This document shows positions 3,587 to 46,697 of a stretch of DNA of 46,697 bases, one piece after another (position 1 is the first letter of the stretch; every line of letters starts with the position of its first letter). Origin of the DNA: Rivularia sp. T60_A2020_040 (GTDB taxonomy: Bacteria; Cyanobacteriota; Cyanobacteriia; Cyanobacteriales; Nostocaceae); contig JACYMD010000061.1 in NCBI GenBank assembly GCA_015272215.1, positions 1 to 46,697 on the forward strand. The letters are read 5' to 3'. The position numbers and the translations under genes were made by a program. The notes under the pieces were generated by a model. The model was not told the origin of the DNA. It saw nothing but the letters and a program-made list of their open reading frames with translations, and did no database searches.

Positions 3587-4624
3587 ATGACATTAGCGAC
3601 AAAATCTACAGTAAAAACTTTAGCTGACTACACTTACAGTGCCATTGAAAAACACTTTAAGAAAACTTGTAAATGGGAAAAATCCGTAAAAAATGACGAA
3701 GATATGGAAGCTTTACACCAAATGCGAGTTGGTATGCGTCGTTTACGTACTACTGTAACTAGCTTTAATTCTATCGTCAATTTTCCTAAATCCGCGAACG
3801 ATAAAAACATTGGTAAAATTGCCCGCTGTCTTGGTTCGTTAAGAGATTTGGATGTTTTAAAAGAAACTTTGAAAACTACATATCAACCACAATTACCCAA
3901 AAAAGAAAAGGTAATTTTAGATGATGTTATTGACACATTGGATAAACAACGTGCAGATGCAAGAATAGATGTCAAAACATTATTTAAAACCGAACGTTAC
4001 AAATCTTTGAAAACCGGATTAAAAGAATGGTTGGAGAAGCCAAGTTATCAACCATTAGCAAATTTAACACTCGAACAAGCTTTACCTGATTTACTTTTAC
4101 CCGAAGTTAGTCGCTTTTTTCTACATCCGGGTTGGTTAATTGGAACTCAAGTAGAAGACAATAGAGTTGTTGTTTCTAGAGATTTTGATCAGAAAAAAGT
4201 AGATAAACAATTGTTAACAAAAGGAGAAGACTTACACGATTTACGTAAATCTGGGAAAAAGCTGCGCTATCAAATGGAATTGTTTACCGATTTGTATGGT
4301 CAAGGATATGCAAATCATCTCGAACAAGTCAAAAATATTCAAGAAGTTTTGGGTTCTATGCAAGATAGCGTTGTTTTAGATGAGTGGTTACAAGATGTGT
4401 TAGAATCAAAGATTAGTAAGGAAATTCCGACTCTAGCAAGTTTACTCACCAAAAATCGTTACGATTTATGGCAACAATGGCAATCTTTACAGGAACAATA
4501 TCTCAAACTTGAAACAAGACTTGAATTTCACCTAATAATTCTTAACCCTGAGATGAAACGGGGATGGGGAGATAGGGAAGCAAGAGAACAAACTGAAGAA
4601 AAAGTTTTGATAGATAATAATTGA
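3587..4624 (+). CDS. CHAD domain protein
   Basis: A 345-residue helical protein of the CHAD family, named for conserved histidines. The first half contains HQMRVGMRRLRT (His44, Arg47, Arg51, Arg54) and the second contains DLHDLRKSGKKLRYQMELF, the two matched signature helices of CHAD repeats. CHAD domains bind inorganic polyphosphate, so a role at polyphosphate granules is likely from family knowledge. There is no attached CYTH domain. The last ~20 residues (from KRGWGDREAREQ onward) are encoded by a GGGGATGGGGAGAT-type simple repeat and probably replace the ancestral C terminus. Confidence 0.88.
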   Translation: MTLATKSTVKTLADYTYSAIEKHFKKTCKWEKSVKNDEDMEALHQMRVGMRRLRTTVTSFNSIVNFPKSANDKNIGKIARCLGSLRDLDVLKETLKTTYQPQLPKKEKVILDDVIDTLDKQRADARIDVKTLFKTERYKSLKTGLKEWLEKPSYQPLANLTLEQALPDLLLPEVSRFFLHPGWLIGTQVEDNRVVVSRDFDQKKVDKQLLTKGEDLHDLRKSGKKLRYQMELFTDLYGQGYANHLEQVKNIQEVLGSMQDSVVLDEWLQDVLESKISKEIPTLASLLTKNRYDLWQQWQSLQEQYLKLETRLEFHLIILNPEMKRGWGDREAREQTEEKVLIDNN

Positions 4625-4698
4625 TTGGCTCTACATCATCTGACAGTTATCGGGGTGGATTTCCATCCCGGTTCACCTTTAATGAAATAAAAGTAATT

Positions 4699-4731
4699 AA
4701 AACCCGCTCCTAGTCATGGAACGGGGTTTTT
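4699..4731. terminator. Hairpin between CHAD gene and tRNA-His
   Basis: AAAACCCG and GGGGTTTT arms flank a short loop and the plus-strand copy ends in TTTTT, so this may terminate the upstream CHAD transcript; its A-rich left flank could also serve the opposite-strand tRNA transcript. Imperfect stem, so moderate confidence. Confidence 0.5.
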
Positions 4732-6573: not shown

Positions 6574-8235
6574 CTAACTCTTAAAAAACTTCTGTCGCAA
6601 ACGACTGACAAAAAGATTTACTTCGGGTAACTTCATCATCGAAGCAATAACCCCGAAAATTGCTAATCCCACAAAACCAGATATTGATAATTGTAAAAGC
6701 TCAATTAACAAATTTCCCGAACTGAAAAACTGTTCCATAGCTTGAGAAGTTGCATAACTAGCAACACCAGCTACTAAACTACCTGCGGCTAAACCTAATA
6801 TTGGTAAACCCCATTCCACAAGAGGTAAACCATTTAATTTACCCTTGAGTAAGAATAACAACATTAATATCGAACTGCAATTAACTCCGACTGTTGCTAA
6901 CACTAAACCCGGTGCGCCTAAATCAAAAACTCTAATAAATATAAAGTCTAATAAAGCATTGAGAAAAATGTTGATCATACTGATGCGAAATGGTGTGTCT
7001 CCATCACCCAAAGCGTAAAATACTCGCACCAAAACATCACGTCCTAAATAGACAAACATTCCGATTCCATTAACAACTAATAGAGAAGCAACCAAAGCTG
7101 AATTTTCGGCATTAAAAGCACCACGTTGATAGACTATCTTCACAATTGGATTTGCTAAAGCCACCATTAAAGCACCCAAAGGTAACATTGTAAAAGCTGA
7201 AAGCAACAATCCTTGACGGATGCGTAATTTTAAATCTCCCCAATTTTGTGGATCTGCCAGTCGAGCAAACATCGGTAATAAAGGAACCAGAATTACTCCA
7301 GAAATAATTCCCAAAGGAGTTTGTACTAATAATCCAGCATTGGCTAAAGCAGGTGCAACCTCAGTACTAATAAATGAAGCGAAAAATAAATCGGTGTAAA
7401 GATTAATTTGTAGCATCCCAGAAGAAAAAGTTGCAGGTCCCATAATTTTCAGGATTTCCTTTACTCCCGGTTGATTAAAATCGAATCTCAACCGAATTCT
7501 ACCCATACCCGCTTTGGTTTGCGCTGCTAGCTGTACAAACCACTGTAAAAGCGCTCCCGCTAAAGTTCCCCCTGCTAAGACAGTTCCCCCTAACATCGCG
7601 TATTCTGGGGTACTAATTTTAGTACCAACTTGTAGGTAAAGAACACCCACAGCAACAACAACCGCAACACTGGAAAACAACGGACTAATTGAAGGTAGCC
7701 AAAACACATTAGCAGCATTCAGAACACCGAAACCAATACCAATTAAGCCTGCTAAAACCGCCATTGGAGCCATTACTCGCAATTGACGAATCGCAATTTC
7801 TCGAACTAATTCCTTTCCCGGCTCCTGTAATCCAGGTGCAAAAATATCAATACATAAAGGTGCAGCTAATACCAAAACAATTGAGACAGCAATCAGTATT
7901 CCACCAATCAGCGTCATGATCGTTTCTACCAACGGTGCTGCCTCTTCCTTTTCACGTTTAGCTAAAACACTAACCACTGCACTGTAAAAAGGACCGTTAA
8001 TACCACCCAGTAATATCAGTAAAAACCCAGGTATCGTATAAGCGTATTGAAAACCCGCAAAAGCAGGACCCAAGCCAAAAGCAGCAGACATAACTAACTG
8101 CCGCACCAAACCAAATACTTTGCTAATTAAAGTGGCAACGGCTACAATACCAGCAATACCAGCAAACGAACGAGACGGTTTATCCTGTTGTTTCGTCACA
8201 AATAGTACCCGAATTTCCAAGGTCAGATATCTCAA
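6574..8235 (-). CDS. murJ: Lipid II flippase MurJ (MviN)
   Basis: A 553-residue polytopic membrane protein of the MOP/MviN superfamily with about 14 hydrophobic helices. The N terminus has the family pattern GIVAVATLISKVFGLVRQL and a following AAFGLGPAFAGFQYAY. MurJ moves lipid-linked peptidoglycan precursor across the plasma membrane. The first 12 residues (MRYLTLEIRVLF) are atypical; a GTG at base 8199 starting VTKQQDKPSRSF is an equally plausible start. Length is normal for the family. It sits near an LCP cell-wall ligase on the same strand, with a textbook terminator downstream. Confidence 0.95.
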   Translation of the reverse strand: MRYLTLEIRVLFVTKQQDKPSRSFAGIAGIVAVATLISKVFGLVRQLVMSAAFGLGPAFAGFQYAYTIPGFLLILLGGINGPFYSAVVSVLAKREKEEAAPLVETIMTLIGGILIAVSIVLVLAAPLCIDIFAPGLQEPGKELVREIAIRQLRVMAPMAVLAGLIGIGFGVLNAANVFWLPSISPLFSSVAVVVAVGVLYLQVGTKISTPEYAMLGGTVLAGGTLAGALLQWFVQLAAQTKAGMGRIRLRFDFNQPGVKEILKIMGPATFSSGMLQINLYTDLFFASFISTEVAPALANAGLLVQTPLGIISGVILVPLLPMFARLADPQNWGDLKLRIRQGLLLSAFTMLPLGALMVALANPIVKIVYQRGAFNAENSALVASLLVVNGIGMFVYLGRDVLVRVFYALGDGDTPFRISMINIFLNALLDFIFIRVFDLGAPGLVLATVGVNCSSILMLLFLLKGKLNGLPLVEWGLPILGLAAGSLVAGVASYATSQAMEQFFSSGNLLIELLQLSISGFVGLAIFGVIASMMKLPEVNLFVSRLRQKFFKS

Positions 8236-8374
8236 AATATTTAACCTGAATTTGGGTTATATGTCAGGTAAATTTTGACAAAAAGCTTAGATGTTTGATA
8301 GTTGATAGTGGTTAGTTGATGGTTGTTATTTATTTCTTCCCCGAACCCCATCCTCTTGTCCCTTTGTCTCCCCA

Positions 8375-8890
8375 TCAACGACATCCAAGACTATACCTTG
8401 TGGAAATGCCGGTAACTGGATTTACTCCCGAAGCGCGATCGCACATCAATTTCACTTGATAGCGGTCAATAATGGCATCGGTAAAATCGGCACCAGTAAT
8501 ATCCGCGTCAAAAAAGCGACTTCTGCTCATGGTTGCTTCTGTAAAATTAGCGTTTTTCAAATTAGCAAAATCCATTGTCACCTGGTCTACTAAGGCTCCT
8601 TTTAAGTTCGCACCTTCTAAATTGGCTCTCAGTAAATTCCCTTTAGTAAACATGGCGTTTGTTAAATTGGCACCTTGAAAATTTATCTCTCGCATTTCCG
8701 CAGCAATAAAATTGACTCCTACTAAATCTTTATTGGAGAAATCACGGTTTTCTAAATTTGTACTGCTGTAATTAATTGTGTTTATTTGCGCGAAAGCCGG
8801 ATGAGCATCAAGTAATACCCATAACCACGCTAAACACAAAACGAAAACTAAACCTAATAAGCGCAAAAGAATTTTTTTCATAATCTTCAA
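8375..8890 (-). CDS. Secreted pentapeptide-repeat protein
   Basis: A 171-residue protein with an N-terminal signal peptide: charged MKKILLR, a hydrophobic core to about residue 30 and a cleavage-like AFA-Q. Residues 50-145 contain about 18 A(N/D)LXX-type pentapeptides (for example ANLTN, ANLEG, ANLKG, ADFTD), forming a right-handed quadrilateral beta-helix. Two cysteines near the C terminus could form a disulfide. Similar cyanobacterial proteins are predicted to be lumenal or periplasmic; function unknown. An alternative ATG lies at codon 4. Confidence 0.88.
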   Translation of the reverse strand: MKIMKKILLRLLGLVFVLCLAWLWVLLDAHPAFAQINTINYSSTNLENRDFSNKDLVGVNFIAAEMREINFQGANLTNAMFTKGNLLRANLEGANLKGALVDQVTMDFANLKNANFTEATMSRSRFFDADITGADFTDAIIDRYQVKLMCDRASGVNPVTGISTRYSLGCR

Positions 8891-8892
8891 AT

Positions 8893-9000
8893 TTGGATAG
8901 TTGATAGTGGATAGTTGACAGTTGACCTGGGACAGTGGTGATTAGAAAAACCATTAACCAACAACTAACAACTAACAACCAACCACTAACTACTAACTAC
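8893..9000. repeat. Heptamer-type simple repeats (GATAGTT / CTAACAA units)
   Basis: A tract of imperfect units such as GATAGTT, GACAGTT and ACAACTA fills the spacer between the pentapeptide gene and the LCP gene and reaches the LCP stop codon. Confidence 0.6.
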
Positions 9001-10457
9001 TTCCAATCTTTCCCAATACGAATTGTTAGGTCAGATTGTATATCGCCGGTGGCGGATATATCAATATGGTTGATGTTTAAAATTTGCTGTAATTCGGATG
9101 CTGCTTGTTTATTACCTTTTTGTACTATAATTTCGGATTTTGCTCGTTCGTCTGCCCAGTTGGGTACTGCATAAACATTTGTAAAGCCCTGTTTTTTGAG
9201 AATTTCCATGACTTTTTGAGTTTGTGCAGAGCGATTACCAGTATTTTGAACGGCAATTTTTAAGCTGGTTATTGGCTTGTTATTTTCCTTAAGGCTAGCT
9301 AGGTTGACTCCAGCGTAATTGGCAAGCAAGTCGGCTTGTCCATTTAAATTCAGCCAGTAACTATCGGGATCTGCACTCAAGCGACTGAATATTCCTGGTA
9401 ACAAAGTCATTTGAAAATCGTTTCGCTCGACTTTTAAAGTGAAGTTGACTAATGCCATCATTTCTTCCAACTTCAAGTTAGTGTCAAAATACTTTCTTGT
9501 TAAGCGAGTTAATTGTGGTAATCGAGGTAAAACTTTGGGACTCCAAAGACGTTCGCGTAAAGCGAGTAACATTGTTTGCTGTCGTTGGACTCTTTCTAAA
9601 TCCCCGCTATTTTGTTCTCGAAAGCGGACATATTGTTCTGCTTTTTCTCCATCAAGAGTTTGCCAACCACTAACCAAATTAATCGATAGTTTTTGAGCGG
9701 AATCTTCGTACTGCATTGGTTTAGGTACAAATACCTCGACTCCTCCCAATTGGTCAACTAATTGTCTAAGACCATCCGTAGAAATACGAATATAGCGATG
9801 AATCGGAGCATTACTCAAACTACGACTTACCACCCGTGCAGCTAAAACTGGGCCATCAGAAGCATTCGCTTGGGATACCTTGTTTAAACCCCTTTCCGGA
9901 ATTGAGATCATCGTACCTTTGGGGATCGAAAGTACCCAAATCGTTTTATCTTCAGGATTAACTCTTACCAACAACATGGTATCGCTATTCCCCGCGAAAC
10001 TTTCCGGTGAACCTGCAACCGTACCGGGTACGGGTTCAACTCCCAAAACCAAAATATTCATCGGTTTTTTGAGTTGATATTGGGAAATATTGCTCCATAA
10101 ATCCCCTGTTAATGGTGCGTCTTCAGTATCGAGTGTAGACCATCCCAACTCATCTTCAGTTTTATCTACTCCACTCCATAACGGAGTCCAAAGCGCCAAA
10201 CTTGATACCAGTAATCCCGATAAAGTAACTCCCATTACAACTGTGAGAATCCAAAACAACCATCTGGGCATTGTTAAACCCAGTCGATAATAAAGCTGAC
10301 TAGGAATAGAACTTGTTTTTTTACCGGATGCCGGCTCAACCGGAACTTGCAGATCATCTACAGAAGCTTGGTTTTGTAAATTTTGCTCGCGATCGTAAAT
10401 CTCTTGATTTTCCCAGCTTTCTATTTGTTTAACCACAATTAACTCCCCACTAACCAA
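8997..10457 (-). CDS. LytR-CpsA-Psr (LCP) family cell-wall polymer ligase with LytR_C domain
   Basis: A 486-residue protein: cytoplasmic N terminus, one membrane segment (about residues 65-90), an LCP catalytic domain (about 130-340) and a C-terminal LytR_C domain (about 395-485). LCP hallmarks include LVRVNPEDKTIWVLSIPK, a DGLRQLVDQLGGVEV block and the arginine-rich YVRFREQNSGDLERVQRQQ. LCP enzymes transfer lipid-linked glycopolymers to peptidoglycan; in cyanobacteria a role in attaching surface polysaccharide is plausible but not shown. Proximity to murJ fits a cell-envelope theme. The first codons come from repeat-like DNA, and GTG at 10436 is an alternative start. Confidence 0.92.
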   Translation of the reverse strand: MVSGELIVVKQIESWENQEIYDREQNLQNQASVDDLQVPVEPASGKKTSSIPSQLYYRLGLTMPRWLFWILTVVMGVTLSGLLVSSLALWTPLWSGVDKTEDELGWSTLDTEDAPLTGDLWSNISQYQLKKPMNILVLGVEPVPGTVAGSPESFAGNSDTMLLVRVNPEDKTIWVLSIPKGTMISIPERGLNKVSQANASDGPVLAARVVSRSLSNAPIHRYIRISTDGLRQLVDQLGGVEVFVPKPMQYEDSAQKLSINLVSGWQTLDGEKAEQYVRFREQNSGDLERVQRQQTMLLALRERLWSPKVLPRLPQLTRLTRKYFDTNLKLEEMMALVNFTLKVERNDFQMTLLPGIFSRLSADPDSYWLNLNGQADLLANYAGVNLASLKENNKPITSLKIAVQNTGNRSAQTQKVMEILKKQGFTNVYAVPNWADERAKSEIIVQKGNKQAASELQQILNINHIDISATGDIQSDLTIRIGKDWK

Positions 10458-10550
10458 TCCCTAACGCGATTTTAATTCAAGCCAAAAATATTGCCACTTT
10501 AAAAGCCCACTGTACACTTGAAGTGTTGTAAATAGAGTAAGTAAGATAAC

Positions 10551-11615
10551 ATGACTAATCGTTTGTTTCCAGTAATTCTTGCAGGTGGTAAAGGCGAACG
10601 TTTTTGGCCTCTTTCTCGACGAATCCGACCGAAGCAATTTTTAAATCTTGATGGTACCTCACGTAGCTTAATGCAAGCCACTGCTGACCGTTTATTACCG
10701 TTAACTGATGGTTGGGATTCTTTATGGGTAGTAACCTCTAGTCTCATAGCAGAAGGTGTAAAGGAACAATTACCCGAATTACCCAGTGCCAACTTGCTTA
10801 TAGAGCCACAAGGAAGAGATACAGCAGCGGCGATTGCCTGGGCAAGTTTGGAAATTCAAAAGCGTTACGGTGAAGACGCTATTATCGGTTTTTTCCCAGC
10901 GGATCACTGGATTGCAGACCAAGAAGCTTTTGCACGTACATTAAGTGCAGCAGCGGAGTTAGCGGCACAAAATCCAGCGATTGTAACTTTGGGCATCAAA
11001 CCAACATTTCCATCAACAGGTTACGGCTACATAGAAGAAGGTGAAAAATTTGGTAACTTTAACAACTTGCCAGCCTATCACGTGAACCGTTTTACTGAAA
11101 AGCCCAACCGTGAAACAGCGGAAACTTTTTTACAAACGGGACGATTTAGTTGGAACAGTGGGATGTTTATTTTCCGAGCCGGTGTTGCGATTAAAGAACT
11201 GTATGCTCATGCTCCAGAAATCATCGAACCCATCGAAAAACATGGTCCTGATATTTATCCTCAATTGCCCAAATTGAGTGTAGATTATGCCTTAATGGAA
11301 AAAACCAATTTAGCTTATGTCTTACCAGTCGAATTTGGCTGGGACGATTTAGGAGATTGGAATGCCATTGAAAGGCTGCTCAAAAAAGAAACAGAGCCAA
11401 ATGTAGAATTAGCTACTCATGTAGGATTAGATACTAAGGGAGCTATTTTCTATGCTAGCAATCAAGATGATGTAATTGTTACCATTGGGCTTGAGGATGT
11501 AGTCGTCGTTCGCGACAAGAATGTCACTTTAATTGTCAAAAAAGAACGCACCCAAGAAATTAAGCAGGTACTCAAGACTCTAGAATCTGATTCTCGATTT
11601 ACCGAATTACTTTAA
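10551..11615 (+). CDS. manC: Mannose-1-phosphate guanylyltransferase
   Basis: A 354-residue nucleotidyltransferase starting with the signature AGGKGERFWPLSR (residues 11-23) and PKQFL. Further ManC motifs are FPADHWI, RFTEKPN and GWDDLGDW. It makes GDP-mannose from GTP and mannose-1-phosphate for polysaccharides and glycolipids. Only the GT-A transferase and the left-handed beta-helix tail are present; the phosphomannose isomerase domain of the bifunctional enzymes is absent, as is normal for cyanobacterial forms of this length. It is divergent from the LCP gene, 93 bases away. Confidence 0.93.
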   Translation: MTNRLFPVILAGGKGERFWPLSRRIRPKQFLNLDGTSRSLMQATADRLLPLTDGWDSLWVVTSSLIAEGVKEQLPELPSANLLIEPQGRDTAAAIAWASLEIQKRYGEDAIIGFFPADHWIADQEAFARTLSAAAELAAQNPAIVTLGIKPTFPSTGYGYIEEGEKFGNFNNLPAYHVNRFTEKPNRETAETFLQTGRFSWNSGMFIFRAGVAIKELYAHAPEIIEPIEKHGPDIYPQLPKLSVDYALMEKTNLAYVLPVEFGWDDLGDWNAIERLLKKETEPNVELATHVGLDTKGAIFYASNQDDVIVTIGLEDVVVVRDKNVTLIVKKERTQEIKQVLKTLESDSRFTELL

Positions 11616-37461: not shown

Positions 37462-39009
37462 ATGGGAAATGTTTCACGTCGGCTAGTCGGATTATTTTTA
37501 GGATTAGTTTTCTACTGTTTGTTTGTACCAGGAGTCGCATTTGCTCAAACTGCAACCCCAAGTCAATCTAATGAAACTTCGATTCAACCTTATTTAGATC
37601 GGGTTGTTGAAAATTTAACGGAATTCAAGTTAGATAATGGCATGAAGTTCATTGTTTTACGACGACCTCAAGCACCAGTAGTTTCTTTTTTGACTTATGC
37701 TGATGTTGGTGGAGTAGATGAACCTATTGGAAAGACTGGTGTTGCTCACTTTTTAGAACATTTAGCTTTTAAAGGTACTGACAAAATTGGTACTAAAAAT
37801 TACGCTAAAGAAAAAGCGTTGCTGGATAGAATAGATCAAGTCGCAGCCCAAATTCAACAAGCCCAAAAAGCTGGACAAAAAAATCGAGTTGCTCAACTCC
37901 AAACTCAATTTCAAAAATTGGAATCACAAGCTGCTAAAATTGTCAATCAAAATGAGTTAGGTAGAATTGTCGAACAAGCGGGAGGAGTAGGTTTAAATGC
38001 GACTACTTCTACAGAAGCTACCAAATATTTTTACAGCTTTCCTGCGAATAAGTTAGAACTGTGGATGTCTTTGGAGTCGGAACGTTTTCTCAATCCTGAA
38101 TTGCGACGGGAGTTTTACAAGGAAAAAGATGTAATTCTAGAAGAAAGACGAATGCGGGTAGATAACTCACCCATCGGACAAATGATTGAAAAGTTTAATG
38201 ATACTGCTTTTCAAGAACATCCTTACAAACGTCCGGTAATTGGTTATGACGAAGATATCCGCAATTTAACAACTCAAGACGTACAGCAATTTTTTGATAA
38301 GTACTATGTACCGAGTAATCTAACAGTGGCGGTTGTGGGAGATGTCAACCCTGCTGAAGTCCAAAAAATAGCTCAAGCTTACTTTGGACGTTATGAAGCT
38401 AAACCGAAGCCAGAGCAGAACCTTCCGGTAGAACCCAAGCAAACCCAACAGCGAGAATTTACATTAAATCTACCTTCTCAACCTTGGTATTTAGAAGGTT
38501 ATCATCGTCCTAGTCTTAACCATCCAGACAATGCAGTTTATGACATTATCGGTGGTTTACTCAGTGATGGACGTACTTCGCGACTATATCAATCTTTGGT
38601 AGAAAAGCAACAATTAGCACTCACTGCTCAAGGATTTAGTGGATTTCCAGGAGATAAATATCCTAACTTAATGTTGTTCTACGCATTAACTGCACCGGGA
38701 CACACCGTTGATGAAGTAGCGACAGCATTAGGAGAACAAATTGCAGCTTTAAAAACACAACCAGTTTCCGAACAAGAATTAGAACGAGTTAAAACTAATG
38801 CTCGTGCGGGATTATTACGTTCTCTCGATTCTAATATGGGCATGGCGCAGCAATTATTAGAATATGAAATCAAAACTGGTTCTTGGAAGAATTTATTTGC
38901 ACAGTTAGAAAAAATTCAAGGTGTAACCGCACAAGATGTGATGAAAGTAGCGAAAGAAACTTTTACCGCAGAAAATCGCACCGTTGGTAAATTATTACCC
39001 AAGGGGTAG
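37462..39009 (+). CDS. M16 zinc metallopeptidase, catalytic member of a pair
   Basis: A 515-residue secreted or periplasmic peptidase with signal peptide (cleavage near VAFAQT, residue 29). The inverted zinc motif is HFLEH at 96-100 in GVAHFLEHLAFKGT; the distal Glu is in LWMSLESERF. Between them is an Ala/Gln-rich coiled-coil insert (about 112-160) longer than in mitochondrial processing peptidase. The C-terminal half has LSDGRTSRLYQSL but lacks the QGLAYSV-type motif. It is followed 261 bases later by a non-catalytic partner, as in heterodimeric M16B enzymes. Confidence 0.92.
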   Translation: MGNVSRRLVGLFLGLVFYCLFVPGVAFAQTATPSQSNETSIQPYLDRVVENLTEFKLDNGMKFIVLRRPQAPVVSFLTYADVGGVDEPIGKTGVAHFLEHLAFKGTDKIGTKNYAKEKALLDRIDQVAAQIQQAQKAGQKNRVAQLQTQFQKLESQAAKIVNQNELGRIVEQAGGVGLNATTSTEATKYFYSFPANKLELWMSLESERFLNPELRREFYKEKDVILEERRMRVDNSPIGQMIEKFNDTAFQEHPYKRPVIGYDEDIRNLTTQDVQQFFDKYYVPSNLTVAVVGDVNPAEVQKIAQAYFGRYEAKPKPEQNLPVEPKQTQQREFTLNLPSQPWYLEGYHRPSLNHPDNAVYDIIGGLLSDGRTSRLYQSLVEKQQLALTAQGFSGFPGDKYPNLMLFYALTAPGHTVDEVATALGEQIAALKTQPVSEQELERVKTNARAGLLRSLDSNMGMAQQLLEYEIKTGSWKNLFAQLEKIQGVTAQDVMKVAKETFTAENRTVGKLLPKG

Positions 39010-39270: not shown

Positions 39271-40794
39271 ATGAAAATTCAAAGAAAAAGGCACAATAAG
39301 AAAGTGAAAAAATTGCTTTACTCGCTACTAGTTTGTTTTGCTTTTGTATTGGTAAGTTTTAACCTTTCTGGTGCAATGGCTCAGCAAGTAACACCGCAAG
39401 GTAATTATACGCCAAAGCATTATACAGAATTGGAATTCAAGCCGGTAGGAGAAATCAAGTTACCCAAATATGAACGGTACCAACTTGAAAACGGCATGAT
39501 AGTTTATTTAATGGAGAATCATGAGTTACCGTTGGTAAATGGTAGAGCACTCATTCATACTGGTTCTCGTTTTGAACCTGCTACAGAAGTTGGTTTGGCT
39601 GAGTTGACAGGTAATGTAATGCGTACTGGAGGAACTCAACAACATCCTCCTGATAAACTTAACCAAATGTTGGAACAACGAGCCGCTTCAGTAGAAACTA
39701 GTATTGATGAAACTTCTGGTAATGCTTTTTTTGAAGCACTCAGCGAAGATACAGATACAGTTTTTGGATTGTTTGCTGAAGTATTGCAACAACCGGCTTT
39801 TATTCAAAATCAGTTGGATTTAGCAAAAACCCAAATGAAGGGTGGTATTGCACGTCGCAACGATAGCCCAGACGATATTGCACGAAGAGAATTCAAAAAA
39901 CTGATTTACGGGGAAAATAGTCCTTATGCTCGTATCCCCGAATATACAACCCTAGATAATATTACCCGCGATGATTTGGTTAAATTCTACCAACAGTACT
40001 ATTATCCCAATAATATGATTTTGGGTATTGAAGGGGATTTTGATTCTGCAAAAATGAAATCTCTGATTCAACAAACATTTGGTAAATGGAAAGCAAATCC
40101 GCAGTTCAAGAAACCTCAATTACCCGAAGTTTCTCAAGCTAAAATGGGTGGTGTATTCTTTGTAAACCAGCCGCAATTAACTCAAAGTAATGTACTTATT
40201 GGACATATCGGTGATAAATTTGCTAATCCCGATTATCCCGAATTGGATGTGATGAATGGGATATTAAATGGATTCGGTGGTAGATTATTTAATGAAGTGC
40301 GATCGCGACAAGGTTTAGCATATTCAGTATACGGTTATTGGAGTCCCCGCTTTGATTATCCAGGAATGTTTATTTCTGGGGGACAAACACGTTCTGATGC
40401 TACTGTACAATTTGTTAAAGCTATCCAACAAGAAATCAAACGGATTCAAACTCAACCTGTAACGGCTCAAGAATTAGCTTTTGCTAAAGATTCTACTTTG
40501 AATTCTTTTGTATTCAATTTCCAAGACCCTGCTCAAACTTTATCACGTTTGATGCGCTATGAATATTACGGTTATCCGGAAGATTTCTTGTTTACCTATC
40601 AAAAAGAGGTGGAAAATACCACAGTTGCAGATGTACAAAGAGTTGCAAAAGAACATCTCAAACCAGAAAATCTAGTTTTTCTAGTAGTAGGGAATCAAAC
40701 CGCTATCAATCCTCCACTTACACAACTTGCATCGCAGATAACGCCTATAGATATTACCATTCCTGGTACACCTAAACCCCAAGCGAATAAGTAA
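39271..40794 (+). CDS. M16-family protein without zinc motif, partner of the upstream peptidase
   Basis: A 507-residue secreted protein (signal peptide to about residue 37, AMAQ). At the position of HxxEH it reads GLAELTGNVMRTGGT, so zinc binding is lost. It keeps the substrate-binding Arg/Tyr region FGGRLFNEVRSRQGLAYSVY that the upstream gene lacks. Complementary loss of motifs is the pattern of M16B heterodimers. The start is ATG 39271, followed by a very basic leader (KIQRKRHNKKVKK). No Shine-Dalgarno: a heptamer array abuts the ATG. Confidence 0.9.
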   Translation: MKIQRKRHNKKVKKLLYSLLVCFAFVLVSFNLSGAMAQQVTPQGNYTPKHYTELEFKPVGEIKLPKYERYQLENGMIVYLMENHELPLVNGRALIHTGSRFEPATEVGLAELTGNVMRTGGTQQHPPDKLNQMLEQRAASVETSIDETSGNAFFEALSEDTDTVFGLFAEVLQQPAFIQNQLDLAKTQMKGGIARRNDSPDDIARREFKKLIYGENSPYARIPEYTTLDNITRDDLVKFYQQYYYPNNMILGIEGDFDSAKMKSLIQQTFGKWKANPQFKKPQLPEVSQAKMGGVFFVNQPQLTQSNVLIGHIGDKFANPDYPELDVMNGILNGFGGRLFNEVRSRQGLAYSVYGYWSPRFDYPGMFISGGQTRSDATVQFVKAIQQEIKRIQTQPVTAQELAFAKDSTLNSFVFNFQDPAQTLSRLMRYEYYGYPEDFLFTYQKEVENTTVADVQRVAKEHLKPENLVFLVVGNQTAINPPLTQLASQITPIDITIPGTPKPQANK

Positions 40795-41587: not shown

Positions 41588-42394
41588 ATGAAAAAACACT
41601 TGAAAATATTGCAACGCTGTTTATTAGTAACCACATCAATTTTAGCTAGCACTATAGTAGGTACTGCACCTAGTAAAGCTGCTACCTTTGCTTTTTCTGA
41701 GGGAAATTTAGTTTTTGAAGATTTTAGTCAAAATCCATCAAATGTTGCAACTGATACAGATACAAATACTTTAACCATAGGTGAAGGGGGTATGGTTCAA
41801 GCAACTGCTGAAGCAGAAGCATTTTTTTTAATTGAACCAGCAGTAGCATTTAATTCATCTTTGAGTGCAGCTTTTGGTGAAAACCGAAATTATTTAGGAA
41901 TTGCACAAAGTGAAGCTTCAGTTATCGGCAACTTTAATGTAAAAGCAAATACAAATTTTTCTTTCGACTTTTTGAGTAACTTAGAACTTGCTACATCTAT
42001 AGATAATTCCTCTATAGAAAATGCTAGAGCAAGTGGGGATATATCTTTTGCACTTATTAATCTAAAAAATGATGATATTTTAGACTTTTTTAGCCTTGTA
42101 GGCAATATCACCACAGAAGGAGATGACGATTTTGTGGCGTTACAACAAAGTGATAATGTTATTCTAAGTGGAATATCTGGTGCGCCTGGTTTTGGTGGTT
42201 TGCAAGAGTTTCTCACGGTATCTATTGAAGGTTCATTACAACGTTATTTTGCTGATGATACAACTGTAGCTTTAGTAGAAGTTAAGCGAAATCGAGCGGA
42301 AGTTCAAGCAGTACCCGAACCTTCAATTAGTCTAGCTTTACTTGTATCCGGTGGTGTTATTAGTCTGGTTTTGAAACGCAAACGACGTAATTAA
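41588..42394 (+). CDS. PEP-CTERM sorting domain protein
   Basis: A 268-residue secreted protein. The signal peptide ends near residue 31 (APSKAATF). The C-terminal 28 residues are the exosortase sorting signal: VPEPSISLALL, a hydrophobic helix, then KRKRRN. The central part is acidic and beta-rich with several Ala/Glu/Asn stretches (ATAEAEAFF, NSSIENARASGD). Such proteins are cut and exported to the surface by exosortase; cargo function unknown. Confidence 0.9.
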   Translation: MKKHLKILQRCLLVTTSILASTIVGTAPSKAATFAFSEGNLVFEDFSQNPSNVATDTDTNTLTIGEGGMVQATAEAEAFFLIEPAVAFNSSLSAAFGENRNYLGIAQSEASVIGNFNVKANTNFSFDFLSNLELATSIDNSSIENARASGDISFALINLKNDDILDFFSLVGNITTEGDDDFVALQQSDNVILSGISGAPGFGGLQEFLTVSIEGSLQRYFADDTTVALVEVKRNRAEVQAVPEPSISLALLVSGGVISLVLKRKRRN

Positions 42395-42603: not shown

Positions 42604-43932
42604 TTATAAAGTAGCAACCAAATCGTTATAAGTAAAGCTTGAATTTCCACTATCAAAATTAAATTGCTCAAAGTTCTGAGTACTCATAATTATCCCATCA
42701 CGCTCAAAGTTGATTTGATTATTATTAGTAGCACCTAAACTGATATTAAAGTCATCTATCTTGAAAGAGCCAAGACTAAGAATATCAAAACCTTTTTCAC
42801 CATTTATTGTCGCGTCACCGAAACCTTCAACAAAGTCTTTTCCATCACCCATATTTATATTCACACCACCACCAAAGCTCGACGCTTCTATCCTATCGGC
42901 TCCATCACCTGTATTAATAGTGCCACCAAAAATACCATAAGATTCAAGCCCCGTAGCATCAGCTTGGATGATATCGGCTCCCTTACCTGTCTTAATAGTG
43001 CCATTAGTGTTTTCAATCGCAATGGCTTTATCAGCACCATTAGCAGTTGCTTGGATGATATCGACTCCCTTACCTGTCTCAATAATACCTTTAGTATTAT
43101 CAATGGCGATCGCCTTGTCTTGAGATTTAGCAACAGCTTCAGCAACAGCTATAGCTAAAGCTTGATTTTCGGGAGTGGCAGCACTGAAAGCGGAAGTTGA
43201 AGCTTCTGCGAAAGTAGCAGAATCGGAAGTAGCAGTAGCAGTAATAATATCTTTACCCTTAGCAGTCAAAAGCTCACCTCCACTGTTATTCAAAGCAGTG
43301 GCAATGATAGTCGCATTTGCTAAACTTTCAGCGATTGCGGCTGCGAAAGCTGTGAGACTGTCATCTATAGGGGCTTGAGCGATACCTTTGACGATAGCTG
43401 CTGCATCTGCTGTGGCTGTAGCAACCGCTGCAACAGAACCTTCGTTTTCCACATCAACGCTGTCATCCCCTTTACCAGTGTTAATTTTACCAGAGTTGTC
43501 TATACCATTAGCAATTGCATTAATATCAATGTTGGCAAAAGTTTCGGCGATGGCGGCACTATCCAATTTATCCGCGTAAGCTATTGCCTCAGAAACTGTT
43601 TGTGCGACAGCAGCAATTTTTGCTGTTGCGGTGCCTCTGACTATATCACGTCCTTTATTTGTACTAATACTTCCTTTATTGTCAATTCCACTGATATTAA
43701 TATTGGCTTTAGCACTTAAATCCGCTGCGGCGATTGCACCAGCGTTTTTAGCTCCAACCTCTGCAATTACCTCTAAACCGAAAGCACTATTTATAGAGTT
43801 ATTACCAATAATTTCATCGGCACCTTGCAATGTTTTAACATCGGAACCTGCGGGATTGAAAATTCCATTGTCTGAATTAACTTTATCCGCTTTGTTGGTA
43901 AATTTGACTTTACTTAAGTCTAAAGGTGCCAT
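42604..43932 (-). CDS. Ala-rich acidic repeat protein with GxGxD-like units, likely exported
   Basis: From the ATG at 43932 (AAGGAG ribosome site; the upstream TTG is not needed) the protein has 442 residues. Around nine imperfect units of the form (N/G)xGxIxTxKGxDxI occur: for example KINTGKGDDSV, IIETGKGVDII, TIKTGKGADII, TINTGDGADRI. In the first two-thirds they are separated by 50-60-residue Ala-rich stretches (AIAESLANATIIATA), then become closely spaced and more RTX-like. The C terminus (FEQFNFDSGNSSFTYNDL) resembles tails of type I secretion substrates. No signal peptide. Composition suggests an extracellular calcium-binding or structural protein. Confidence 0.75.
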   Translation of the reverse strand: MAPLDLSKVKFTNKADKVNSDNGIFNPAGSDVKTLQGADEIIGNNSINSAFGLEVIAEVGAKNAGAIAAADLSAKANINISGIDNKGSISTNKGRDIVRGTATAKIAAVAQTVSEAIAYADKLDSAAIAETFANIDINAIANGIDNSGKINTGKGDDSVDVENEGSVAAVATATADAAAIVKGIAQAPIDDSLTAFAAAIAESLANATIIATALNNSGGELLTAKGKDIITATATSDSATFAEASTSAFSAATPENQALAIAVAEAVAKSQDKAIAIDNTKGIIETGKGVDIIQATANGADKAIAIENTNGTIKTGKGADIIQADATGLESYGIFGGTINTGDGADRIEASSFGGGVNINMGDGKDFVEGFGDATINGEKGFDILSLGSFKIDDFNISLGATNNNQINFERDGIIMSTQNFEQFNFDSGNSSFTYNDLVATL

Positions 43933-43935
43933 CAA

Positions 43936-44218
43936 ATTCTCCTTTTAATTTTGTTGTAATTTCAGCACTCAACCAGATTAATTTTGCGGGGTACTCCGTC
44001 AGTCGTCTTAGACGACTTTCGCTGTGAGACAGGGACTTTAAGTCCCTGGCAGATTAGATACTCACCCTTCATAATTAATGTGGCGGAGTACTGTCTTTTG
44101 CATTAAATTTGACGGATTCGTTGTCTCCCAAACCTAGGGAGACGTTATGTATAACGTCTCTACAACCCATCATAATTAATGGGACTGACTACTACTTTAC
44201 GCTCAGTGCCAGATAAGT
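43936..44218. other. Spacer with palindromes between the repeat protein and poly-Ser gene
   Basis: About 280 bases. GTCGTC-TTA-GACGAC near 44001, AGGGACTT-TAAGTCCCT near 44032-44050 and the GAGACGTTAT palindrome at 44139-44160 follow one another. They could separate the two neighbouring transcripts. Confidence 0.6.
44139..44160. repeat. GAGACGTTAT palindrome
   Basis: Perfect ten-base arms around GT. Third member of the GAGACGT family in the window. Confidence 0.85.
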
Positions 44219-44425
44219 TTATATTTCGCCAGTTTGCAGTTTAGAAGAACTAGAACTTGATGACGAAGAACTACTAGAACTGCTGCTAGAAGAAACGTTA
44301 ACACTAACGCTTTGACTAACTTGAGTATTATTATCACCTGATGCTTTCGCAACACTTTTAGCTTCGGAAATCACTTTACCATCAGGGGATACTATTCTTT
44401 TGGTGATAACTCGATATTCACTCAT
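44219..44425 (-). CDS. Small protein with a 17-serine tract
   Basis: A 68-residue protein. The first half (MSEYRVITKRIVSPDGKVIS) looks like a conserved beta segment; then come a polar QVSQSVSVNV stretch, 17 consecutive serines and KLQTGEI. The serine tract uses five different codons (TCT, AGT, TCA, TCG, AGC), so it is kept at protein level and is not a simple triplet expansion. No GG leader is present. No clear ribosome site. It lies on the same strand as the double-glycine peptides upstream. Confidence 0.65.
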   Translation of the reverse strand: MSEYRVITKRIVSPDGKVISEAKSVAKASGDNNTQVSQSVSVNVSSSSSSSSSSSSSSSSSKLQTGEI

Positions 44426-44512
44426 AATTATCTATGTTTATCTGGCTTATTTTGTGAACAGAAACTAAAAATCGATCGCATAATAACCTGTTGTAGAGAA
44501 GAGGTTATATTA

Positions 44513-44848
44513 CTATATCTCTTTAGGTATACCAGACGAGCTAACTCTTGCAAAAGATGCTTTGTATATACTACCATCACTCAAATTACCTGTTACAGCA
44601 CCAGTTTCTATCGTGCTATTTTCAGTTTCCATTGACATCATCATTCCAGAACTATTAGTCTCTGGATCGTAAAATTCCTGCATTTCGTAACCATCTTGTT
44701 GCAAGGGTTGTCCCCAAGGCTGGAGCCGAGAAAAGAAAGCATTTAAAAAACGATTTCTTGAATAACTTAACAACCCACCCTGCACTTGATTATCATCCAG
44801 AAACTCTGTTTGACAAAAACTGAGGTCGGCAATTTCTAATCTACCCAT
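44513..44848 (-). CDS. Small protein with possible double-glycine leader
   Basis: A 111-residue protein. The N terminus MGRLEIADLSFCQTEFLDDN ends in QVQGG (Gly24-Gly25), with Val at -4 and acidic residue at -8, a pattern shared with the 98-residue neighbour. It resembles cyanobacterial peptides starting (I/L)xDLxFC that carry GG leaders. The predicted cargo begins LLSYSRNRF and has an aromatic, Gln-rich middle and a Met/Ser-rich end. No recognisable modification enzyme is present in the window. Function unknown. Confidence 0.65.
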   Translation of the reverse strand: MGRLEIADLSFCQTEFLDDNQVQGGLLSYSRNRFLNAFFSRLQPWGQPLQQDGYEMQEFYDPETNSSGMMMSMETENSTIETGAVTGNLSDGSIYKASFARVSSSGIPKEI

Positions 44849-44987
44849 TATGCACCATTTTTAAATCAATCGAAACTCAAGTCAATCGCCGAAAGCTAAG
44901 AATAACTTTCAGCGATTTTTATTATCCAAAAATCGTTTTTTAGCTAACAGCAGACTTGAAGTCATGCTATTAGCTAAAAATCATTTT

Positions 44988-45284
44988 CTAGTTAACAGCA
45001 GACTTGGAATCAGAGTAAGATTGAGAGGTGTAGTCGTCAGCATAAGTAACTGTCAAGGTTTCGCTGAAGCTGTCTTCACCAGATGCATCAGCAAAAGCTT
45101 CAGCATCAGCTAAGTTACCTTTTACTACTGCTTTAGAAAACACAGTTTTAAAGGCATCTAGTCTGTTTGTTACATCAGTATTTACTACCTTTGTAAATTC
45201 GAAGTCAGGCTTGGAGTAACCATGACCACCAACAACTTCAGTTCCTTCAACAGCTTCGATGTGGTTTAAATCAAAAATATTCAT
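44988..45284 (-). CDS. Small secreted-type peptide with double-glycine leader
   Basis: A 98-residue protein with a strong ribosome site (AGGAG, seven bases before ATG). Leader MNIFDLNHIEAVEGTEVVGG matches the double-glycine consensus: Ile at -12, Glu at -8, Val at -4, Gly-Gly at -2/-1 (residues 19-20). The predicted cargo is acidic and Ser/Ala/Asp-rich (ADAEAFADASGEDSFSET, SDSKSAVN), with no cysteine, so disulfide or lanthionine chemistry is unlikely. Such cargo is cut by C39 peptidase ABC exporters. Role (adhesin-like, signal, bacteriocin-like) is unknown. Confidence 0.72.
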   Translation of the reverse strand: MNIFDLNHIEAVEGTEVVGGHGYSKPDFEFTKVVNTDVTNRLDAFKTVFSKAVVKGNLADAEAFADASGEDSFSETLTVTYADDYTSQSYSDSKSAVN

Positions 45285-45860
45285 GAGATTCTCCTGGGAA
45301 TTAATTAATCTTTATCTGGGAATGTTATGTAAGCAATTTGTTTTTTTGCTTACATTTATAACTATATATTTTTAATTTAAAAAAGTCAACTTATTTTCGA
45401 TTACTTACAATAGCAATTTCTTATATGAAAGAGATATTTTTTATCTTTTTTACTTATCCTTTCATCTATTTATTACATATTTTTAAACAGTAAAAGTTGA
45501 GCAATAAAACTATGTTTTTTGCTCGTATTTGAAAGATAATTAAAATAATTTGTTTGAGTTTGAGAATTAATTATCGATGAATAAATTACTGTGAAAAGAA
45601 GCTGTAGAACCTTGATTTTGAGTGTGCTAAGAAGTCGTGTTTTTATCGGTATTTCCTGCTTTTACGGTTATTTATCGTAAAAATCCGACTTCTCTATAAA
45701 CTTGGTTTGCAGCACTTTTCGTAGAGATTATCATCGAATTTGCGTATGATTAGCGTTAAATTTTAAGCCATAAATTTCATAAATTACACCTACCCGATGA
45801 AAAAGTTATTAATTTTTAAATTCTGTGATTTTGGAATAAAAAAATACTGAGAGAAATGCT
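45285..45860. other. Intergenic spacer, no supported gene
   Basis: About 575 AT-rich bases between the PPIase gene and the leader-peptide gene. The only structured element is the palindrome at 45630-45693. Promoters for the leader-peptide gene should lie in 45300-45500 but none is convincing. Confidence 0.6.
45630..45693. repeat. AGAAGTCGTGTTTTTA palindrome
   Basis: Imperfect long inverted repeat, left arm AGAAGTCG-T-GTTTTTA, right arm TAAAAATCCGACTTCT, 64 bases overall. Diverged member of the AGAAGTCGGG family; it lies about 170 bases after the PPIase stop codon. Confidence 0.75.
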
Positions 45861-46643
45861 TTATCTCGACATCACTAAATCGGGTGATACTTGGTTGTCA
45901 ACATTAGAATCGAATGAAGTTGTAATTGACCTTTGTTTGATTTCTTGCTTTAACCAACTATTAAATAAATCGCTAACAATTTGCTCTCGTAACTGCTCAT
46001 TTAATTCAGGTTGAATAATTTCCTCAACCCAAATGAGATAAATACCTTTCGGAGTCATAATTGGCTTAAGAACTTGCGGTGGAGTAGCAGCAAAAACACT
46101 ACTCGCAACTTCCGGACGAAAATCTTTACGTCGTCGAACTCCTTGATATCCACCAGCACGACGTAACTCTGGATTTGGGATGTATTCACGAGCAATTTCT
46201 GGGAAGGTTAATTCATTTTCTTCAAGAGCGTAAAACAGTTCCAAAGCCAAATCATAATCATCCAAAAGGACTTCATAGGTAACAGCTTTCACGAAATCGA
46301 GTTGATTCGGATAAAAGAAAGCTTCGACTTTATCGTTAAACAGATGATGTGCCACCTTTTTAGAAAGCACAGTGTGATGGACTAATTCTTCAAACTCATC
46401 CAGAGAGAGATGATGAGCTTTCAACCAAGCCCAAGTATCTGCTGCTTTGACAAGTTTTTTCGCAAACCTGAGCCTGTCTCCTTCTTGCTGTAATTCATCC
46501 TCCTCTACGGTAATACCTTCTTTGGAAGCAGTATCAGCAATAATTTGTCGAGTCGCTATTCCCTCGATGACACCGGGAATTTGACAAGACATTTTCAGAT
46601 AATGAATAACCTCTGTAGGTGATATGGATAGAATGTTTGACAT
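45861..46643 (-). CDS. Parvulin-like peptidyl-prolyl isomerase of export-operon type
   Basis: A 260-residue protein. Residues 1 to about 130 form a SurA-N-like helical chaperone domain (MSNILSISPTEVIHYLK, FEELVHHTVLSKKVAHHLF). Residues about 135-240 are a divergent PpiC/parvulin domain (FPEIAREYIPNPELRRAGGY, FAATPPQVLKPIMTPKGIYLIWVEEI). No signal peptide. In cyanobacteria this type is commonly encoded with HlyD and C39-peptidase ABC exporters, where it probably helps cargo folding. Here the leader-peptide genes are on the same strand downstream; upstream DNA is outside the window. A heptamer array abuts the start codon and replaces any Shine-Dalgarno. Confidence 0.85.
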   Translation of the reverse strand: MSNILSISPTEVIHYLKMSCQIPGVIEGIATRQIIADTASKEGITVEEDELQQEGDRLRFAKKLVKAADTWAWLKAHHLSLDEFEELVHHTVLSKKVAHHLFNDKVEAFFYPNQLDFVKAVTYEVLLDDYDLALELFYALEENELTFPEIAREYIPNPELRRAGGYQGVRRRKDFRPEVASSVFAATPPQVLKPIMTPKGIYLIWVEEIIQPELNEQLREQIVSDLFNSWLKQEIKQRSITTSFDSNVDNQVSPDLVMSR

Positions 46644-46697
46644 AATTGGTAATTGGTAATTGGTAATTGGTAATTGGTAATTGGTAATTGGTAATTG
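46644..46697 (+). repeat. AATTGGT heptamer array touching the PPIase start codon
   Basis: Seven full units and five more bases of perfect AATTGGT run from the base next to the start codon to the window edge. It is the most regular array in the window and continues beyond it. Confidence 0.95.

What the first reader, a model, noticed from the sequence alone, without database searches (positions are those of the whole stretch)
42604..46643. Candidate type I / double-glycine export locus carrying novel cargo
Five minus-strand genes in 4 kb: a SurA/PpiC-like isomerase, two small proteins with GG-type leaders, a poly-Ser protein and a 442-residue GxGxD-like repeat protein. The isomerase type usually accompanies HlyD and C39-peptidase ABC transporters in cyanobacteria. 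None of the four cargo-like genes matches a family whose function I know. The set looks like cargo served by one exporter encoded just past the right edge.
Basis: partly seen in the sequence, partly recalled or inferred. Interest (0 to 1): 0.75.

Follow-up and report, generated by a model that had tools for sequence, protein, structure and literature searches.

The report
Cyanobacterial double-glycine protein export locus
This stretch of a cyanobacterial genome makes small proteins that look built to be clipped and pumped out of the cell, beside a helper protein, and relatives indicate that the pump is encoded just past the end of the sequenced piece; the machine is of a known kind, but the jobs of the exported proteins are unknown.

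Summary
Observation confirmed: a PpiC/SurA-like protein, two small proteins with double-glycine (GG) leaders, a poly-Ser protein and a 442-residue repeat protein lie where stated. The window is a whole contig ending in a 7-bp repeat beside PpiC. A 6-kb contig of the same genome ends in the same repeat and carries a C39-peptidase ABC transporter and HlyD. Synteny supports the join: HlyD lies upstream of PpiC in 54 of 65 named relatives, ABC in 53 of 63. Leader-bearing small ORFs are about 12 times denser downstream of PpiC than upstream of the exporter. GG leaders are conserved, cores are not, and 71 of 83 GG-family hits lie within 10 kb of a PpiC. So the central prediction holds. The machinery is not new: it matches 'group II' cyanobacterial bacteriocin clusters (Wang et al. 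2011), M16 peptidases included. The poly-Ser and 442-residue proteins have no GG leader; only position ties them to the exporter (442-residue family: 11 of 21 examined loci). In some relatives a microviridin cassette shares the locus. Cargo function is not shown; I prefer a surface or matrix role, with antimicrobial action the main rival.

The parts
45861..46643 (-). PpiC/SurA-like protein, 260 aa, no evident signal peptide; likely cytosolic chaperone of the export system (inferred)
   Evidence: Pfam Rotamase_2 1.6e-7 and Rotamase 2.7e-5, both over cut-off; NCBIfam TIGR04500 59 bits, below its cut-off of 180; first 45 residues below the 1.6 hydropathy mark in 70 of 71 relatives measured
44988..45284 (-). 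GG-A cargo, 98 aa; leader of 20 aa ending VVGG, predicted mature part 78 aa
   Evidence: family hits within 10 kb of a PpiC in 50 of 60
44513..44848 (-). GG-B cargo, 111 aa; leader of 25 aa ending VQGG, predicted mature part 86 aa (one helix and five strands)
   Evidence: family hits within 10 kb of a PpiC in 21 of 23
44219..44425 (-). Ser family, 68 aa, conserved head RIVSPDGKVISEAKS and Ser-run tail, no GG leader; role unknown
   Evidence: within 10 kb of a PpiC in 12 of 14 hits; dN/dS 0.22 and 0.12 on few differences
42604..43932 (-). 442-aa GxGxD-like repeat protein, predicted beta-solenoid with helical inserts; possible co-exported partner
   Evidence: fold search gives no significant match
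46644..46697 (.). (CAATTAC)n tandem repeat at the contig end, 5' of PpiC; the assembly breaks here, by inference between HlyD (contig C125) and PpiC
45361..45389 (-). promoter-like TTGACT-17-TATAGT about 76 nt upstream of the first GG gene (consensus match only)
   Evidence: 21 such sites found in the region; shuffles give mean 13.5, sd 4.5
41588..42394 (+). PEP-CTERM-type protein, 268 aa, convergent recurrent neighbour
   Evidence: TIGR02595 20.4 bits, over its cut-off of 16; Pfam PEP-CTERM 15.2 bits, under its cut-off of 20.7; homologue downstream of PpiC in 15 of 65 relatives
39271..40794 (+). M16-family peptidase homologue with signal-like N-terminus and no HxxEH motif
   Evidence: PF05193 6.1e-40; sequence; hydropathy
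37462..39009 (+). M16-family zinc peptidase with signal-like N-terminus and HFLEH motif; M16 is a marker of group II clusters
   Evidence: PF05193 8.1e-37, PF00675 3.3e-18; sequence; hydropathy; PMC3140520 part 2

Best explanation
This is the cargo half of a peptidase-containing type I export system. Inferred steps: the two GG proteins are made as precursors in the cytosol; the PpiC/SurA-like protein, which has no evident signal peptide, keeps them unfolded or hands them over; the C39 domain of the ABC transporter binds the leader (I-x-D-L ... V-x-G-G) and cuts after the second Gly; the mature 78- and 86-residue proteins leave through the ABC-HlyD-outer membrane channel. Shown: the genes, the leaders, a C39 domain with the catalytic positions kept, the exporter in the same genome and its recurring order ABC-HlyD-PpiC-cargo in relatives, a TolC-like gene elsewhere in the genome. 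Inferred: the contig join, cleavage, transport and the chaperone role. I think the exported set more likely works at the cell surface or matrix (GG-A cores alternate A-x-A-x-A; a beta-solenoid protein and a PEP-CTERM protein are neighbours) than as diffusible antibiotics, but this last step is weakly supported.
For: C125 carries ABC (C39, TM and ATPase domains, plus a weak cNMP match) and HlyD and ends in the window's repeat. In 20 loci fetched from unnamed relatives HlyD precedes PpiC in 20 and ABC precedes HlyD in 18; the other two start inside or just before HlyD at a contig end. Named set of 73: HlyD 54 of 65, gap 10-1861 nt; ABC 53 of 63. Leader-like small ORFs per 100 kb at loci with HlyD: 41.7 downstream, same strand; 5.7 opposite strand; 3.45 upstream of ABC; 0.34 shuffled; at least one in 47 of 60 loci. 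Leader identity median 0.58/0.54 against core 0.22/0.15. C39 aligns with solved PCATs around DCG, the His and Asp-Pro (that these are catalytic is established knowledge). The other intact PpiC homologues of this genome lie 0.6-5.3 kb from their own C39 ABC (C132, C90, C138). TolC-like gene on C53. AxAxA in 84 GG-A cores: 99 against 7.9 (sd 3.1) in shuffles.
Against: The C125-C129 join is not in one contig; the repeat alone proves nothing, since it gives 237 overlapping matches in the genome and also opens C121. One more C39 ABC, on C37, has no PpiC either, though it is of the short type and has its own HlyD and GG ORFs. 11 of 65 PpiC loci have no HlyD upstream; 9 of these have no ABC and no GG-A, GG-B or Ser hit either. 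10 of 60 GG-A hits lie over 10 kb from a listed PpiC; one GG-A/GG-B/Ser cassette (G029) has no exporter within about 10 kb. The leader pattern was written after seeing these families. GG-B cores show little of the alternation (small-x-small-x-small 52 against 40.7, sd 7.1). No expression, cleavage or secretion data were available. The matrix role rests on composition and neighbours only.
Confidence: 0.68

Rival explanations
1. The GG proteins are bacteriocins or signals: small diffusible antagonists or pheromones released by the same exporter, as the 2011 naming assumes.
For: GG leaders and C39 exporters are typical of bacteriocins; cores vary far more than leaders and dN/dS is high for the 98- and 111-aa genes; tandem copies occur in relatives (seven leader ORFs in L142); a microviridin precursor, a protease inhibitor family, lies within 10 kb downstream in 11 of 65 relatives.
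Against: No immunity gene was recognised in the family scans, which is weak evidence since such genes are hard to spot; GG-A and GG-B recur across many genera (40 and 35 of 65 loci); GG-B is predicted to fold as a compact domain; in Synechococcus elongatus the GG proteins exported by a C39 transporter serve biofilm (PMC4997328, PMC9981879, passages).
Confidence: 0.27
2. Only the two GG proteins are cargo. The Ser protein works inside the cell (for example as an export adaptor) and the 442-residue protein leaves by another route or is a chance neighbour.
For: Neither has a GG leader. 10 of 21 examined strong-hit loci of the 442-residue family have no group II exporter in the fetched stretch, and three weaker-hit loci (L121-L123) have none either; one of the ten (L109) has other ABC- and HlyD-like genes. 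Ser and the 442-residue protein show lower dN/dS than the GG proteins.
Against: Ser lies within 10 kb of a PpiC in 12 of 14 hits. The 442-residue family sits by such an exporter in two further genera (G031; G067 and G094), and in G031 it lies beside ABC, HlyD and a GG-A gene without a PpiC hit.
Confidence: 0.4
3. The locus is a decaying remnant without a working exporter.
For: The window itself holds no exporter; decayed copies of such systems exist: a PpiC homologue with two stops on C59 of this genome, a 39-residue PpiC fragment beside a GG-A gene in L069, a shortened exporter in L104.
Against: Open ABC and HlyD frames on C125 and purifying selection on PpiC, Ser and the 442-residue gene.
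Confidence: 0.04

Closest known systems
Group II cyanobacterial 'bacteriocin' gene clusters (Wang, Fewer, Sivonen 2011, PMC3140520; parts 1-3 of 5 read)
   Same: Long-type ABC with N-terminal nucleotide-binding domain and C39 peptidase, HlyD, SurA/rotamase protein, M16 peptidases, several GG precursors close by
   Different: Here a Ser-tail family and a 442-residue repeat protein without GG lie among the cargo; I could not see the paper's Table S3, so its precursor list may contain the GG families
PteB / EbfG1-4 biofilm export system of Synechococcus elongatus (PMC4997328, PMC9981879; passages read)
   Same: Small GG proteins exported by a C39-domain protein; efficient secretion and biofilm need the peptidase Cys
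   Different: EbfG sequences were not compared; 'peptidyl' and 'HlyD' do not occur in the main text of PMC4997328
HetC-HetP locus of heterocystous cyanobacteria (PMC10986499, passages read)
   Same: Same ABC architecture (cNMP + C39); a PpiC paralogue nearby in this genome (L008); HetP carries KIKDLAYLE...IRGG, like the cargo leaders
   Different: The HetC paper reports no membrane fusion gene near hetC; HetP's motif is internal and its GG is not kept in all HetP-family frames seen
Class II microviridin clusters (PMC7823629, PMC13039773; passages read)
   Same: GG precursor with a C39 transporter and HlyD; in 11 of 65 relatives a microviridin precursor lies within 10 kb downstream of PpiC
   Different: No microviridin precursor was found in the window's genome (its control genomes did not ring, so absence is not proven)
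Rosaritide MirC, TIGR04500 (PMC13097080, passages and one section read)
   Same: SurA-like protein encoded beside a PCAT, acting with a peptide precursor in the cytosol
   Different: MirC has an extra N-terminal domain and serves a graspetide synthetase; the window protein matches only profile positions 102-335 at 59 bits, below cut-off, and no synthetase was among the ORFs scanned here

Membership tests
Group II cluster (Wang 2011) | Long-type ABC: N-terminal nucleotide-binding domain + C39 + TM + NBD | tested here: met
   On C125, not in the window: C39 2.1e-40, ABC_membrane 6.3e-52, ABC_tran 9e-36, with about 310 residues before C39; cNMP_binding only 22.2 bits, below its cut-off of 27.5
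Group II cluster (Wang 2011) | HlyD and SurA/rotamase protein adjacent | tested here: met
   Contiguous in relatives; in this genome split by a contig break
Group II cluster (Wang 2011) | M16 peptidases | tested here: met
   Two M16 genes at 37462-39009 and 39271-40794
Group II cluster (Wang 2011) | ABC tree position in clade II | not tested
   No tree was built
PCAT substrates | Leader ending GG, conserved against a variable core | tested here: met
   98- and 111-aa proteins (on family members); the Ser and 442-aa proteins lack it
PCAT substrates | Cleavage after GG and export by the transporter | not testable with these tools
   Needs an assay
NHLP or N11P precursor families | Match to the family models | tested here: not met
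   No such hit listed at E<=1 in Pfam or NCBIfam
RTX proteins | Repeated GGxGxDxUx | tested here: not met
   0 canonical, 5 GxGxD; no Pfam hit at E<=1
TIGR04500 | Score over the curated cut-off (180 bits) | tested here: not met
   59 bits
Parvulin/PpiC domain | Pfam rotamase domain over cut-off | tested here: met
   Rotamase_2 32.6 bits against 27, Rotamase 25.5 against 21.7
Microviridin cluster | Precursor with Inhibitor_I10 and ATP-grasp ligases | tested here: inconclusive
   Precursor not found in G000, but the control genomes did not ring; present in relatives such as L053. Ligases were not searched for genome-wide in G000.

The most novel reading that the evidence does not exclude
One exporter delivers a multi-part surface structure: GG-A subunits with alternating small residues assemble into beta-rich fibres, GG-B is a folded cap or nucleator, the Ser-tail protein and the 442-residue beta-solenoid are co-exported partners without GG leaders, the PEP-CTERM neighbour anchors the assembly, and microviridins sent by the same pump in relatives shield it from proteases. 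This would be a curli-like extracellular machine of filamentous cyanobacteria run by a type I, not a type VIII, route.
Probability: 0.15. Interest if true: 0.65.

Novelty: new member of a known kind. Interest (0 to 1): 0.4.

Why it matters
A close PpiC homologue (E<=1e-70) is present in 184 of 192 same-family genomes (188 at E<=1e-30, which also admits paralogues such as the HetC-linked one), and where flanks were read it usually sits with this exporter, yet the exporter's natural cargo has no assigned job. The recurring order ABC-HlyD-PpiC-GG-A-GG-B-Ser gives a defined, testable cargo set for one pump, in a group where such pumps drive biofilm (S. elongatus) and, through HetC, cell differentiation. 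It also suggests which transporter could export and trim microviridins in some species.

Tried and rejected
RTX toxin reading of the 442-aa protein: rejected as a membership claim (no canonical nonapeptide, no Pfam hit). NHLP/N11P precursors: no model hits listed. Microviridin in this genome: precursor not found, but the control genomes did not ring, so absence is not proven. Proof of the contig join from the shared repeat: rejected, because the pattern gives 237 overlapping matches (at most 1 mismatch) in the genome and also opens contig C121; the join rests on synteny and on pairing each PpiC with a C39 ABC. HetP as shown HetC cargo: not claimed, because only 8 of 19 HetP-family frames match the leader pattern, some frames being incomplete. 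Fold of GG-B and of the 442-aa protein in the PDB: no significant match (best E 0.057 and 0.24). PDB sequence search for PpiC (E<=0.01) and the 442-aa protein (E<=1): nothing. Phylum search for GG-B: 11 of 386 sampled genomes, at most 12 candidates scored in each; 5 in this family, 6 in other families of the order, the latter weak (1.7e-11 to 1.9e-4) and mostly limited to the leader. RNA families: only one tRNA in the window.
Full report
What is there. The window is contig C129 of a 6.0-Mb, 139-contig genome. The closest named relatives at this locus are a Richelia sp. MAG (95% identity in PpiC), Plectonema cf. radiosum LEGE 06105 (94%), and Rivularia and Calothrix genomes (71-72%), so the source is probably a heterocystous, Rivularia-like cyanobacterium; the genome also holds a HetC-HetP locus. 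The five reported genes are present on the minus strand at the stated place. Comparison with two close relatives shows coding constraint, clear for PpiC and the 442-aa gene, on few differences for Ser, and weak for the two GG genes.

The missing exporter. The window ends 54 bases upstream of PpiC inside a (CAATTAC)n repeat. Contig C125 (6040 bp) carries an ABC gene with C39, transmembrane and ATPase parts and a weak cNMP match, then HlyD, and ends in the same repeat. The repeat alone is weak evidence, since it gives 237 overlapping matches in the genome and also opens C121. Two other lines decide it. First, synteny: in 20 loci fetched from unnamed relatives HlyD lies upstream of PpiC in 20 (about 2 kb away in L059) and ABC upstream of HlyD in 18, the other two being cut by contig ends. 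In 73 named loci, HlyD is upstream in 54 of the 65 with at least 2.5 kb of upstream sequence (gap 10-1861 nt) and ABC in 53 of the 63 with at least 6 kb; of the 11 loci without HlyD, 9 also lack ABC and any GG-A, GG-B or Ser hit. The HlyD of C125 is about 95% identical to the HlyD next to the 94-95% identical PpiC genes. Second, pairing: the other intact PpiC homologues of this genome lie 0.6-5.3 kb from their own C39 ABC gene (C132, C90, C138). A further C39 ABC, on C37, also lacks a PpiC, but it is of the short type and has its own HlyD and GG ORFs. The C39 domain keeps the DCG, His and Asp-Pro positions when aligned with the solved bacteriocin transporter 4ry2; chains listed for the whole transporter include HlyB, 4ry2 and ComA, besides many P-glycoproteins. 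A TolC-like gene lies on C53.

The GG cargo. Downstream of PpiC in relatives comes a recurring order: GG-A (98 aa here), GG-B (111 aa here), Ser (68 aa here), then variable genes; some loci repeat, lack or reorder members. Among 65 named loci with at least 8 kb downstream, GG-A occurs in 40, GG-B in 35, Ser in 18, a PEP-CTERM-type neighbour in 15, a microviridin precursor in 11, an ATP-grasp ligase of its type in 10, an M16 gene in 9 and the 442-aa protein in 1. At loci with HlyD, small ORFs with a leader-like start are 41.7 per 100 kb downstream on the same strand, 5.7 on the opposite strand, 3.45 upstream of the exporter, and 0.34 in shuffled sequence; 47 of 60 loci have at least one. The pattern was written after the families were seen, so the contrast between regions matters more than the absolute rate. 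Leaders are conserved and cores are not: median pairwise identity 0.58 against 0.22 for GG-A (84 sequences) and 0.54 against 0.15 for GG-B (39 sequences). In 40 near-complete genomes, 50 of 60 GG-A, 21 of 23 GG-B and 12 of 14 Ser hits lie within 10 kb of a listed PpiC hit, against less than one expected by chance for each. Seven of these genomes had supplied seeds; without them the counts are 35 of 42, 10 of 12 and 6 of 8. The regions of the exceptions were looked at: G031 has ABC and HlyD without a PpiC hit, G147 an ABC, G066 an ABC that runs off the stretch, one G059 region a PpiC fragment; G029 is a GG-A/GG-B/Ser cassette with no exporter in the stretch; another G059 region has only the PEP-CTERM homologue; G108, G004, G060 and G111 show nothing of the system apart from a distant M16 homologue in G111.

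The two leaderless proteins. Ser has a conserved head and a serine-run tail but carries no GG. The 442-aa protein is predicted as a beta-solenoid with helical inserts (best model mean pLDDT 77, pTM 0.81; the five models range from 48 to 77, and the alignment had only 5 sequences), with no significant match among solved structures. Homologues at E<=1e-10 occur in 38 of 192 genomes, the weaker ones matching only the last 170 residues or so. Of 22 loci with strong hits, 21 including the window were examined: 11 lie by this type of exporter, in genus g1 and in two further genera, and 10 show none in the fetched stretch, which for some is shortened by contig ends; one (G051:C118) was not fetched. 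Three weaker-hit loci (L121-L123) show no exporter. Co-location is real but not exclusive, so I treat these two proteins as candidates.

PpiC role. The protein has rotamase domains over Pfam's cut-off. Among 71 of the 73 relatives measured, 1 reaches the 1.6 hydropathy mark in its first 45 residues, while the signal-bearing neighbours in the window score 1.9-2.7, so a cytosolic chaperone is more likely than a periplasmic foldase. The nearest studied parallel, MirC (TIGR04500), is encoded beside a PCAT and copurifies with a peptide-modifying enzyme (PMC13097080, section read). The window protein scores far below the TIGR04500 cut-off, so this is a likeness, not a membership.

What the system does. 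GG-A cores are rich in alternating A-x-A-x-A (99 seen, 7.9 expected, sd 3.1; the sequences are related, so this describes the family and is not an independent test); GG-B cores show little of it. GG-B is predicted as one helix plus five strands (mean pLDDT per block 86-93 over residues 41-100, 76 overall) with no significant PDB match. Together with the PEP-CTERM neighbour and the solenoid this makes a surface or matrix role my first choice, by analogy with EbfG proteins of S. elongatus, which need a C39 peptidase protein for efficient secretion and of which EbfG2 forms amyloid-like fibrils (PMC4997328 and PMC9981879, passages). A bacteriocin or signal role is the main rival.

Known or new. 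Wang, Fewer and Sivonen 2011 (PMC3140520; I read parts 1-3 of 5) describe group II clusters with this ABC type, HlyD, SurA and M16 peptidases, with several GG precursors each; the window's two M16 genes complete the match. Class II microviridin clusters with C39 and HlyD are also in print (PMC7823629, passages). Seven library searches brought up no account of the Ser family or of the 442-aa family, but none of them named those families directly, and supplementary tables could not be opened, so I make no claim of first description.

Noticed in passing
L008:6120-6590 (-), 3963-4712 (-), 8194-11349 (-): HetC-HetP locus on contig C132 with a PpiC paralogue nearby. HetP carries KIKDLAYLEVVGKQKTEIRGG, like the GG cargo leaders; 8 of 19 HetP-family frames in the fetched loci match the pattern. 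Wang 2011 noted the motif; the 2024 HetC paper states that no leader-bearing gene was found near hetC (passage).
   Followed up: partly
L125, L131, L135, L140, L143, L148, L157, L163, L168, L169, L181, L196: Microviridin precursor downstream of PpiC in these 12 named loci (L135 has under 8 kb downstream and is outside the 65), in 7 of them ahead of the PEP-CTERM gene. The window and its 95% relative L124 have the 442-aa gene directly beside the PEP-CTERM gene.
   Followed up: partly
window 41588-42394 (+): A homologue of this PEP-CTERM-type protein also lies by GG or ABC genes where no HlyD or PpiC hit was seen (L065, L067), so it may be a functional partner.
   Followed up: no
window 44922-44995: 31-nt imperfect inverted repeat (77% complementary) between the two GG genes; it could set their expression ratio.
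   Followed up: no
L104 and L105: Relative G130 carries several copies of the 442-aa gene on two contigs and two microviridin precursor hits, with a shortened exporter (ABC running into a partial PpiC, no HlyD hit).
   Followed up: no
L064:8800-10600 (G029): GG-A/GG-B/Ser cassette with no exporter or PpiC hit within about 10 kb.
   Followed up: partly
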